From: Umbelopsis ramanniana AG
Taxonomy: Eukaryota; Mucoromycota; Umbelopsidomycetes; Umbelopsidales; Umbelopsidaceae
NCBI RefSeq assembly: GCF_025399195.1
Contig: NW_026252109.1
Coordinates: 62,001-126,000 of the forward strand
Reading direction: 5' to 3'
DNA: 64,000 bases
Notes under the pieces: generated by a model
What the model was told of the DNA's origin: nothing
Seen by the model: the letters and a program-made list of their open reading frames with translations, nothing else
Databases searched by the model: none
Shown: one piece after another, positions 31,233 to 35,356 of the stretch
Layout of the letters: every line of letters starts with the position of its first letter
Position numbering within the stretch: the first letter of the stretch is position 1
Program-made: the position numbers and the translations under genes

Positions 31233-34200
31233 TTACAAATCGAAAAGTTTCCGAATTTCTTGGGTTGTGAGTTTGGTACTTTGTATCGCTCCATCACCAA
31301 GTGCTCCATGGATGATGCGAGCTTTTTTCTGCTGAAGTGCAACCACCTTCTGTTCTATGGTATGATTCACAAGTAGACGAACCACGTGCACGGGAGAGGT
31401 TTGCCCTATACGATGAACTCGATCGATAGCTTGTTCTGTGAGATAGAATAGAGTTAACAAAAGTAAAAGGTGATAGTCAAGTGTGCGGTGTGCATTACCT
31501 TCCAGCGCCGGGTTCCACCACACGTCGGTCAAAATAACTCTGTTAGCGGCAGTAAGATTTAATCTTTCATAATAAGAAAAAAAAAGTAACATTAGACAAG
31601 GAAAGGTTTCTCTCTCAAAAATAGTCTGTATGCACTTACCCTAGTGATCCACATTTGAGCGATATGAGCATAACTGTCGTCTCTGGATCATGCTTTAAAG
31701 CTTTAAGACTCTTCTCTCGCAGCGGATTAGGCATTGAGCCATCGTATCGGCAGTACTTGAATCCACATTTCTTCAACGGTTCCTCGATAAGATCCAACAT
31801 GGCAGTGAACTGTGAGAAAATGATGGTTTTTTCCGTTGGCGCTGTGATTCTGGTCTCATCCAAGATTTCCATCAATTTGGTGATTTTGGCACTGGTAACA
31901 AAGCGTTGCGACACGTCTTTGCCGATTTCCGGTGGATCTTCCGATACAGGTGGTGGGATAGCAGCCTTCGTAACTTGTTCAGCGCACTCCCAACAGAAAG
32001 GCGACGTCGCATCCGAGTTGGAATTGAATAGCGTTCGACTGCATAGCTCACAAAATCGCTTGCCTGGTAGATTCTTGTCAAAGACAGACATGCCTGGTTC
32101 TGCAACTCCACCCCAACCAAGATCGACAGCCATTTTAGCCATCAAAGCTCGTTTCGCCAACGCTTCTCCTGCTTCCTTCGCTTCTCGACGACTATTGTTG
32201 ATAGACTTTAAGCTGGTTGTTTCCAGTTCTAACGCATCAGCATCAGCTCCCATAGACTTGAGGACTAGCTGTGGGTGATTACAGGCTGTAAAGTAGGTGC
32301 AACAATTTAGTCTCAGACTCTGTGGTTCAGCTTGGCCATCTTTTCAATAGGTGCCGCATAAGCTTACCTTGTCGCAACCTCAACAGCATACATAGCATGT
32401 TTAGATAATTTTTCTCGTCTTTGCCAGACTTGAAAATCTTTTCCACAGTGGATTTGGTTTTCAGGGTCAGCATCTCGTATAGCTCTCGTTCCTTTGGTGA
32501 AAAATCCAAAAACACATCCTTCTTTTCTCGATCAGGTAGTTTGAGTGTAAGCTTGGTCGACAGAGGACCGTCAGAATCTTTGCCATTTGACTGACCGGAT
32601 TCCACAGAAGCAGCTGGAGACATCGCTTCGGAACCTGTAGCTCCAGGAGTGGTTGCTCGAGATGGATTCGCAGATGGAGTGGCCTCTTCTTTCGAATTCA
32701 TCTGCTCTTCCTTCAAAACACTCTTCGTACGACGTAGCATGATAGCCATCAGTACAGCTTTTAACCTTGCCATGGCAGTCTTGCTGTGTCCCGCTTGAAT
32801 TTGCGCCGATATCGTCTTTTTAAAATTAGAATAATTAGCTAAGGGTTGTATTTGTAAAAATCGTAGCAAGCTGTAGAGTTCTTCGACATTGTTCTGAAGT
32901 GGTGTTCCCGTCAAACACCATCGTTTGGATGCTACAAGGCTGGTACATGATAAGGATGAACGGGTGTTTCTGTTTTTGATTTGCTGTGCTTCGTCTTGGA
33001 TAGAAAAGAGGGTAAGGGGGAATATTCTTTTTGTTATAAATGATGTTTATACATGTCATACATACCTAATACAACTCTATACCACTTTGTTTGAAAAAGC
33101 GGCCCATATCCGCTGGTACTTTGTAAGCCTGAATCATACTCAACGGGAAGAATGCTTGCTTCGAATGCGCTTTGTCCTGGTGAGGACACCGCACTCGTTG
33201 GGTCGTCATCGAAATCGTCCAAGTCATTCCGCCGTTTCTTCGTATTCTGAAAACTAGGTTCCGACTGCGTATCGTTGTCCGTGTCAATAGCTGCGGATTT
33301 TTTCTTTCGTCCTTTCTCAATGGCCGGAAAATCAGACGCTACCACCTGGTAAGTAGTGATGACAATATCATATTGCAAAAAATGCTTTGGGTCTGCACAG
33401 GTTATGATAGTGAATTAGTATGACATGCTATCTTTGAACCGTGAACTTAGTTTATTGAATTTACCTTTCGTTCTGGATTGACCGTGGTGGATCAAAACCC
33501 TTAGTTTACCATCTTCTGTCTTGGATTGGATCTCGGATGCCCATTGCTGGATAAGCGCAAGTGGTGTGACGATCAAAGTCAATTTTTTGGGAGCTGTGTC
33601 GTTTGTTCGTACTGAGCCTTGCTCTTGAGGTACACATTGCGCAGTATCCTGTTGATTATCAGCATTCATAGTCGAAAGAATTAATCCAATGGTTTGAATG
33701 GTTTTTCCTAAGCCCATCTGTAAAATACGATAAGAAAGGTAAGAACAGGTTTCAGATTAGTCAAGCAACAGTAGTAATGTATACATACATCCTGCACAGT
33801 GAAGAAATTAAAGAAAGAATGAAAATGAGAATTAGTCAACAGCAAGACAATACGATAGCACACTTCAAATAATGTTTACATACATCAGCCAGAATTCCAC
33901 CGTTACTGCTCTTGTTGGCTTCACGATCAATCATCCAGTTAACTCCGTGAACTTGATGCTTCATCAATGCAATCTTCAATCCTTCGATGTGTCGTTTACT
34001 GTCATCTAGCTCTTCATCATCATCTTCAATATCTCCAACATCTGGCATCTCATTATCCTCTAAAATGGTAATGGTGCCATTATCGTCTCTATATGATTGA
34101 GATAACTGAGAAACAGCTCGTTTGCGACCGAAGGAACTTGGAATACTATCCAAAAGCTCTGATATATCTTGTTTTGTTTGATCGACCGCGCCATGATTAG

Positions 34201-35356
34201 CAGAATCGTAAGCACTAGCACCGTAAGAATATTTGGAGCGACTGCTGGATGTATTGGTCGGCACGGGGTTGGGGTTATTGTATCGAGTGGAAGGATTAAA
34301 AAAAGGAGGTTCTTCTAAGTAGACGTTTTGTTGATAGAGGTTGGCACTAATGAGCTTGACATTGGCTGGTTGACAGTACAGAATGATATACACTGGTGTG
34401 CGATGTTGATTTGATTTGTTTCGAGGAATTACTGCATCCCACCATATCATGCCAGCATCGGCCATAGGGCCAAGAAATTTGGTATCTTCAAAGGGAAGCC
34501 ATCCAAAGAACTTTTTGGGAGGAGATCTTGACGATACCACAAAGGAGTAGTTTCCAGTTCTATCGCGTCGACCTTCATTCAAAACTTGAATAGCTTCGTA
34601 ACCTTCATCTTTGACAAGTTCAATAGATTTGATAGCAACAATATCGGTTTTGACCATGCCTAGACAAATGTTCTTATTGGTCATTTCTTCATCCAGAATC
34701 ACATCGTCGTCGTCTGTACTAGTGTGTGAAGAAGATGTGGTCGTCACCACGGTTGGTATGGCTGCTGGTGAACTCAGCATGGCGACTGGACCTTGACGAT
34801 TGATTTGGTTGTATACGGCTTGATGCTGCTGTCGTGCCAACATCAATCTGCTATAATCCATAGGAGACACAGCTACATTTCTATCCGTCGGTAGTGGTGT
34901 ATAGGGATTTCGAAAAGGTACACCGCTAGATGATAACGATCGCACTAGATTAGTCGCATTATGAGGAGAATGAATGGAGAGGTGTTCAAAAGACGGCGTA
35001 GTGTTCAGTTGATTTGGCGTCTCATCTTTCTGAACAGGTGTTCCTGAAGACATTGGTAACTGCGGCCAAAACTGTTCATGGGCGACATAGGTTTGTACAG
35101 GTTGTTGGTGCCGGTGCAAATTATCAGTGGTTAGTATTCGTCGTCTTTTCTCAGAGTGAGGGGATTCTGATACGGGTTGAGGTTGTGGGACAGGATATCG
35201 GTGCTCTTGCGAGAATAAAAACGGGTCTGCTGAAGATGAATCTGAGAGATCTATGTACATTGAGTCCTGAGTTCGTTGAGCTGTAGACGAGACTATAGGA
35301 CTGCTTCCTGCGCTCTGCGTCTGTCGGAAGGACTGATTCTGAAAGTCATAGTCCAT
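31233..35356 (-). CDS. SNF2-family DNA-dependent ATPase, Rad5/16-Uls1-like
   Basis: Eight exons including a 3-nt microexon, complement(join(31233..31435,31499..31563,31640..32285,32368..32994,33066..33392,33465..33717,33789..33791,33884..35356)), 1198 residues. The first ~440 residues are Ser/Gln-rich with a conserved block (VVSSRSPPKKFFGWLPFED). ATPase motifs follow: MKHQVHGVNWM, GGILAD-D-MGLGKT, VVLDEAQQIKN and CLTGTPLQNN. Helicase C has IIFSQFTAMLD and AIDRVHRIGQT. Where Rad5/Rad16 relatives carry a RING, this protein has CELC-x15-CWEC (about residues 973-995), a four-Cys zinc knuckle. Such ATPases remodel DNA-protein complexes in repair and transcription. I place it in the Rad5/16 group by the long insertion between the ATPase lobes. 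Ubiquitin ligase activity is doubtful. Confidence 0.9.
33775..33886 (-). repeat. 17-bp duplication flanking the SNF2 microexon
   Basis: On the coding strand, GATGTATGTAAACATTA (33886-33870) spans the end of exon 1 and its donor. GATGTATGTATACATTA (33791-33775) spans the 3-nt microexon and its donor. The two copies match at 16 of 17 positions and are about 95 bp apart. Confidence 0.9.

What the first reader, a model, noticed from the sequence alone, without database searches (positions are those of the whole stretch)
33718..33883. Three-nucleotide microexon (GAT) at the Walker A motif of a SNF2 ATPase, with a duplicated exon-donor boundary
Splicing exon 1 (ends 33884) directly to exon 3 (starts 33717) gives ILAD-MGLGKT, one residue short of the family's ILAD-D/E-MGLGKT. 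Between them, TGCAG|GAT|GTATGT at 33791-33789 has a full acceptor and donor, and its inclusion restores the residue. The 17 bp over exon-1 end plus donor recur (16/17) over the microexon plus donor. So the microexon may have arisen by local duplication, a rare visible route to a minimal exon. Skipping it would remove one residue beside the ATP-binding loop, a possible on/off switch.
Basis: partly seen in the sequence, partly recalled or inferred. Interest (0 to 1): 0.75.

Follow-up and report, generated by a model that had tools for sequence, protein, structure and literature searches.

The report
Conserved three-base exon in fungal ATPase
A fungal DNA-dependent ATPase gene carries an exon only three bases long that supplies one amino acid next to its ATP-binding loop, and related fungi appear to share it although gene predictors often miss it.

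Summary
On the minus strand, exon 1 (ends 33884) and exon 3 (starts 33717) of a SNF2 ATPase gene are separated by 166 nt holding two complete introns (92 and 71 nt, each with GTATGT donor, TTGACTAAT and CAG) around a 3-nt exon GAT (33791-33789). With it the gene reads as one 1198-aa ORF with GGILADDMGLGKT. No single GT/GC-AG intron tried supplies the residue. Relatives support it. An ORF from a close relative (P0125) reads LQ|D|VSITLL..YLLQ|MGLGKT: acceptor, one Asp codon, donor and a whole intron 2, similar to ours beyond 200 of 200 shuffles. In Lichtheimia, the annotated protein lacks the residue while a spliced-looking contig has it. Of 35 Mucorales proteins among the 120 listed hits, 16 read ILAD-MGLGKT, against 2 of 85 others, as expected if gene callers skip a shared microexon. 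So this is probably an old, constitutive microexon, not a recent local duplicate. The 16/17-bp repeat is real but does not date the exon. A regulated switch has no support here. A new, unusually conserved member of a known kind; RNA of this species and DNA of relatives were not available.

The parts
33884..35356 (-). Exon 1 coding part (ATG 35356 to ..GGILAD)
   Evidence: exon-1 ORFs of relatives P0121-P0124 run from GGILAD into VC.. or VS..
33792..33883 (-). Intron 1, 92 nt, GTATGT..GTGCAG, branch-point-like TTGACTAAT at 33839-33831
   Evidence: branch-point role recalled, not tested
33789..33791 (-). Microexon GAT (Asp), phase 0 on both sides
   Evidence: read through as Q-D-V-S in P0125
33718..33788 (-). 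Intron 2, 71 nt, GTATGT..TTACAG, branch-point-like TTGACTAAT at 33764-33756
   Evidence: similar to intron 2 of P0125 (0 of 200 shuffles as high) and the tail in P0126 (0 of 200), not to that in P0128 (47 of 200)
33465..33717 (-). Exon 3, begins with the ATG of MGLGKT (Walker A)
33393..33464 (-). Intron 3, 72 nt; not present in the reading of P0003
31233..33392 (-). Remaining exons and introns 4-7 (33065-32995, 32367-32286, 31639-31564, 31498-31436), stop codon ending at 31233
33870..33886 (-). First copy of the 17-bp near-repeat (exon-1 end plus donor)
33775..33791 (-). Second copy of the 17-bp near-repeat (microexon plus donor), 16/17 identical

Best explanation
A constitutive 3-nt exon (GAT, Asp) lies between two normal-sized spliceosomal introns in a Rad5/16-like SNF2 ATPase of an Umbelopsis-like fungus, and supplies the acidic residue before MGLGKT. 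Shown by sequence: two complete introns, the only in-frame solution among those tried, and the same layout read through in a close relative. Inferred: it was present in the common ancestor of Umbelopsidales and Mucorales and was later merged into exon 3 in one Umbelopsis lineage (P0003) by loss of introns 2 and 3. Inferred mechanism: short introns are recognised across the intron, so introns 1 and 2 are removed one after the other; removing intron 1 joins GAT to exon 1 and leaves a strong ..GATGAT|GTATGT donor for intron 2, avoiding the crowding that a 3-nt exon would impose. Skipping gives ILAD-MGLGKT and probably an inactive ATPase.
For: Full 1198-aa ORF with all seven introns removed. On a 150-aa fragment PF00176 scores 113.5 bits with the residue and 103.5 without; Rad5 (6l8n) and the archaeal 1z63 chain have ADE- and ADD-MGLGKT; 7 paralogs in this genome have a contiguous GAR codon there and one a GAA codon split by another intron. 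P0125..LQ|D|VS..LLQ|MGLGKT, its intron 2 scoring above 200 of 200 shuffles of our intron 2 but not of our intron 1 (21 of 200 as high). P0121 (LAD|VCEN..) and P0126 (..YLLQ|MGLGKT) both have longest contig 17774, so probably one contig in which Asp is attached to neither exon. Lichtheimia: annotated P0011 lacks the residue; P0136 (975-nt contig) has LADDM and is joined across intron 3, where P0134/P0135, identical over the 65 residues of exon 3, start at MGLGKT and run into intron 3. Of 35 Mucorales rows 16 read ILADM and 4 LAD-VSx(x)-M, against 2 blanks of 85 others. Logic: moving a GT donor and an AG acceptor by 3 nt in all can add K, Q, E, V or a stop, never D.
Against: No transcript of this species was available. 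No relative's DNA was seen, only translations. Of the 35 Mucorales rows 12 have D, which is uninformative; 2 have K and 1 has N, unexplained. P0003 has Asp attached to exon 3, so the exon is not universal even in close kin, and its intron showed no match to either of ours (183 and 195 of 200 shuffles as high). P0128's tail did not match our intron 2 (47 of 200). That P0136 is cDNA is inferred, and its reading departs from P0011 after TTY. Two weaker Pfam families scored slightly higher without the residue (ResIII 24.7 to 26.7 bits, DEAD 24.0 to 25.9).
Confidence: 0.9

Rival explanations
1. The microexon is young: exon-1 end plus donor was copied locally into a former single intron in this lineage.
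For: 16/17-bp repeat, the pattern being found nowhere else in the assembly; GTATGTANACATTA occurs only 6 times in the assembly, 2 of them here; the intron cores look somewhat alike (global score reached by 24 of 1000 shuffle pairs, local by 101 of 1000); only 2 of 496 donor-like pairs in the window are as alike.
Against: P0125 has the same exon and a similar intron 2 but a second donor that is not GTATGT; Lichtheimia and other Mucorales data imply an older exon; 9 of the 17 bases are the Asp codon plus donor; without the residue the ancestor would have lacked a motif position.
Confidence: 0.07
2. The microexon is a regulated switch: skipping makes an ATP-binding-dead or altered ATPase.
For: Skipping keeps the frame; a regulated microexon is reported in Trichoderma Xlr2 (PMC11121469, start of abstract and two passages seen).
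Against: The one spliced-looking relative contig found (P0136) includes the residue; annotations without it are best explained as predictor failures; the skipping intron is 166 nt against 63-92.
Confidence: 0.05
3. No microexon: the protein really lacks the residue, with one 166-nt intron.
For: It is the simplest GT-AG reading, and 16 of 35 Mucorales annotations read so.
Against: P0125 and P0136 readings; 10-bit PF00176 loss; D present in 80 of 85 non-Mucorales hits and an acidic residue in the paralogs read; intron size; shuffles.
Confidence: 0.03

Closest known systems
1-nt exon of Fusarium CYP621A P450 genes (PMC12940212; abstract and Discussion read)
   Same: Ultra-short exon in a fungal gene, inside a conserved motif, found because the joined exons fall short; conserved over many orthologs
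   Different: 1 nt, needed for the frame; backed by RNA reads. Here 3 nt, frame-neutral, different gene and phylum, no RNA of the species
1-nt exon of plant APC11 and conserved plant microexons (PMC4674806 abstract and introduction; PMC8831610 passages)
   Same: Constitutive, deeply conserved, widely misannotated, lost in some lineages by intron loss; one plant cluster (16) lies in an SNF2_N domain
   Different: Plants; whether cluster 16 lies at the Walker A position was not seen
Trichoderma Xlr2 microexon (PMC11121469; start of abstract and two passages)
   Same: Microexon in a filamentous fungus
   Different: Depends on glucose and lies in a regulator of sugar and cell-wall-degrading activities; no regulation shown here
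Phanerochaete P450 microexons (PMC1184071; passages)
   Same: Very short exons in fungal genes
   Different: Shortest exon there is 6 bp (2 aa)

Membership tests
Ultra-short constitutive microexon | Internal exon of 15 nt or less with its own acceptor and donor | tested here: met
   GTGCAG|GAT|GTATGT
Ultra-short constitutive microexon | Needed to restore a conserved protein motif | tested here: met
   ILADDMGLGKT
Ultra-short constitutive microexon | Conserved in relatives | tested here: met
   P0125 directly by read-through, the P0121/P0126 pair by inference; Mucorales by inference; merged in P0003
Ultra-short constitutive microexon | Present in mature mRNA of this species | not testable with these tools
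   No RNA reads held; P0136 in Lichtheimia is indirect
Regulated cassette microexon | Inclusion varies with condition | not testable with these tools
   No RNA-seq
SNF2 ATPase, Rad5/16-like | PF00176 and Helicase_C domains | tested here: met
   238.4 and 81 bits
SNF2 ATPase, Rad5/16-like | RING finger between the helicase lobes | tested here: not met
   No Pfam RING hit at E 0.001 in the 1198-aa protein; a Cys-rich CELC..CWEC stretch is there, so only 'Rad5/16-like' is claimed (best solved chain Rad5 for a 153-aa piece)
Exon born by local tandem duplication | Repeat across both exon-donor boundaries, as old as the exon | tested here: inconclusive
   Repeat real; the relative with the exon has a different second donor; no relative DNA to date it

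The most novel reading that the evidence does not exclude
The 3-nt exon predates the Mucoromycota radiation (also hinted by ILADM annotations in Calcarisporiella P0043 and Paraglomus P0044, in a related subfamily), has been kept for hundreds of millions of years (age recalled, not computed), and is missed in about half of the Mucorales gene models listed here; it would be among the oldest known 3-nt constitutive exons and a natural test of how a spliceosome handles an exon too short to bind both U1 and U2AF at once.
Probability: 0.4. Interest if true: 0.65.

Novelty: new member of a known kind. Interest (0 to 1): 0.5.

Why it matters
A 2015 abstract (PMC4674806) gave 6 nt as the smallest constitutive exon then known and 3 nt as the smallest alternative one before reporting a 1-nt case, and the fungal examples that my searches listed are few. 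This exon sits in a catalytic motif, appears to be shared across Umbelopsidales and Mucorales, and would explain a recurrent one-residue error in deposited ATPase models. It can be settled with public RNA-seq, and it offers a small natural system for sequential splicing of a minimal exon by intron definition.

Tried and rejected
Relatives' DNA: scans of viral contigs (14 pattern matches, none confirmed) and genome contigs (41 pattern matches, none confirmed) gave nothing, so protein read-throughs were used instead. Introner or repeat-family origin: the 202-nt stretch has one match in the assembly, itself. Own-genome SNF2 paralogs: one search scanned the 23 loci then held on one strand only; one search repeated it on both strands of 26 loci. 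Seven paralogs (L001-L006, L022) have a contiguous GAR codon before ATGGG; L008 (also L013, L019) has a GAA codon split G|AA by a different intron; L021 has a contiguous GAC (read, followed by GKV, so outside the pattern). None of these has this microexon; PF00176 matches without a locus were not read. Intron 1 versus intron 2 as duplicates: weak (24 and 101 of 1000 shuffle pairs as high). The P0121 5' intron fragment did not separate our intron 1 from intron 2 (20 and 22 of 200 as high). NAGNAG acceptor as the cause of the ILADM annotations: cannot add D, so rejected where a D transcript is inferred (Lichtheimia); not excluded for other rows. One literature query was too loose to be useful, and one on Umbelopsis introns listed 7 papers, none on this gene by title and abstract start.

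Not in print as far as searched: (microexon with Mucoromycota; Mucorales with exon skipping and alternative splicing; microexon with Mucor) listed 2, 1 and 6 papers, none about this gene by title and abstract start; of these only listings were seen. Passages only were seen of PMC3990503, PMC1184071 and PMC6224609.

Full report
Observation. The 166 nt between exon 1 and exon 3 contain GTATGT..CAG (92 nt), GAT, GTATGT..CAG (71 nt). Both introns carry TTGACTAAT, a branch-point-like motif (role recalled), with 39 and 38 bases from its end to the end of the intron. The whole gene model, seven introns of 63-92 nt, gives an uninterrupted 1198-aa protein with PF00176 and Helicase_C domains. The organism is Umbelopsis-like: the best named hit is Umbelopsis sp. 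WA50703 (69% identity over the searched region; 75% over 1096 aligned columns). No other test of the taxon was made.

More than chance. Three internal AG..GT exons of 3n length up to 60 nt exist in the 166 nt; GAT is the only one that leaves both introns over 40 nt. Among the single-intron variants tried (donor shifted -15 to +30, acceptor -30 to +15, GT or GC donors), none adds 3 nt. A generic YAG-NNN-GTRWGT arose in 34 of 20,000 shuffles, YAG-GAN-GTRWGT in 1 (all). A TGACTAAT, CAG, NNN, GTATGT pattern, written from this site, occurs once in 22.8 Mb, here.

Close relatives. The protein database includes what look like raw ORFs called on genomic contigs, which read through introns. Exon-1 ORFs P0121-P0124 (94, 87, 79 and 76% identical) go from GGILAD into VC or VS, codons that fit a GTNTGY or GTNAGY donor (Ser could also be TCN). 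Exon-3 ORF P0125 reads MPLQ-D-VSITLLMLCLANRNLFIVTLTSYLLQ-MGLGKT: acceptor, one Asp codon, donor, a 78-nt intron in frame, acceptor, Walker A. Scored against our introns as degenerate codons, it matches our intron 2 (41.2 against a shuffle mean of 16.2, 0 of 200 as high) and not our intron 1 (21 of 200 as high); P0126 also matches intron 2 (0 of 200), P0128 does not (47 of 200). P0121 and P0126 share the same longest-contig length, 17774, so they are probably one contig in which Asp is attached to neither exon; this is an inference from the length.

A relative without it. P0003, identical to full-length P0001 over the 665 residues of the exons they share, reads LAD-VSFW..FLK-DMGLGKT and has no intron 3. 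If it is plain genomic read-through, this lineage has Asp on exon 3 and lacks introns 2 and 3. With the microexon older (next paragraph), that is best read as joint loss of neighbouring introns, as by recombination with cDNA (mechanism recalled). Its one intron did not match either of ours (183 and 195 of 200 shuffles as high).

Mucorales. The search found 5090 proteins and listed the best 120. Of the 35 that I assigned to Mucorales from their names (taxonomy recalled), 16 read ILAD-MGLGKT, 4 read LAD-VSx(x)-MGLGKT (a donor read into the exon, then joined to M), 12 have D, 2 K and 1 N; of the 85 others, 80 have D, 2 are blank, 1 is P0003, 1 has H and 1 has no readable motif. On a quick tree of 50 rows the 18 blanks (16 Mucorales, P0043, P0044) need 11 changes against a shuffled mean of 14.9, as low in 9 of 500 shuffles: spread over many lineages, but more clustered than chance, as expected if some lineages keep the exon and others have merged it. 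A D cannot be gained by moving a GT donor and AG acceptor by three bases in all; only K, Q, E, V or a stop can. In Lichtheimia the annotated protein P0011 lacks the residue, P0136 from a 975-nt contig has LADDM and is joined across intron 3, and P0134/P0135, identical to P0136 over the 65 residues of exon 3, start at MGLGKT and run into intron 3. So the Asp codon there must be an internal 3-nt exon, provided P0136 is cDNA and the annotation of a relative (98% identical over 97 residues) stands for the same gene structure. P0136 departs from P0011 after TTY. The 12 D rows cannot tell a correctly called microexon from a merged one.

Origin. The 17-bp near-repeat is found only here in the assembly, its GTATGTANACATTA part 6 times, and a 7/8 match after GTATGT is uncommon (2 of 496 pairs in the window, this pair being one). 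But nine of the 17 bases are Asp codon plus donor; the relative with a similar intron 2 has a different second donor; and the exon seems older than the split from Mucorales. A trace of origin would not be expected to survive that long in introns. Homogenisation or chance is more likely. How the exon first arose remains open; one simple route is gain of a second intron one codon away from an existing one.

Function. The residue precedes the P-loop (ADE- and ADD-MGLGKT in Rad5 and in 1z63); seven paralogs of this genome have a contiguous GAR codon there, one a split GAA and one GAC. Its loss costs 10 bits in PF00176, while the weaker ResIII and DEAD matches gain about 2 bits each. It would be expected to move the P-loop relative to the preceding strand; not tested. 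Splicing by intron definition in sequence, intron 1 first, is my preferred mechanism; passages of PMC6224609 show that, in a part-spliced reporter in HeLa cells, a donor six bases past a junction can be used, giving a 6-nt microexon.

Novelty. Ultra-short exons are known: 3-nt alternative exons and a 1-nt constitutive exon in Arabidopsis (PMC4674806 abstract), many in plants (PMC8831610 passages), 1 nt in Fusarium (PMC12940212), a regulated one in Trichoderma (PMC11121469). This is a new member, notable for its likely age, its place in a catalytic motif and the recurrent misannotation.

Noticed in passing
L008, L013 and L019 (G000:C6, near 330077): An SNF2 paralog has a phase-1 intron splitting the codon at the same motif position (..tag|AAATGGG, Glu codon split G|AA), so introns have entered this motif more than once.
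   Followed up: partly
P0043 (Calcarisporiella) and P0044 (Paraglomus), outside the window: Annotated proteins of a related subfamily also read ILAD-MGLGKT, hinting that the microexon, or another like it, may be older than Mucoromycotina.
   Followed up: no
P0003 (and P0001, P0002 by kinship only), relatives of the window gene: This Umbelopsis lineage seems to lack both intron 2 and intron 3, a neighbouring pair, as in cDNA-mediated intron loss.
   Followed up: partly
window 33065-32995 and 31639-31564: Introns 4 and 6 of the gene, as modelled, end in AAG (CCAAG, GAAAG) rather than CAG/TAG.
   Followed up: no
PMC8831610, plant microexon cluster 16: Land plants have a microexon cluster within an SNF2_N domain; whether it is at the same motif was not seen.
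   Followed up: no
P0028, P0030, P0037: Three Mucorales models have N or K in place of D (LADNM, LADKM); K could be an acceptor shift, N could not.
   Followed up: no
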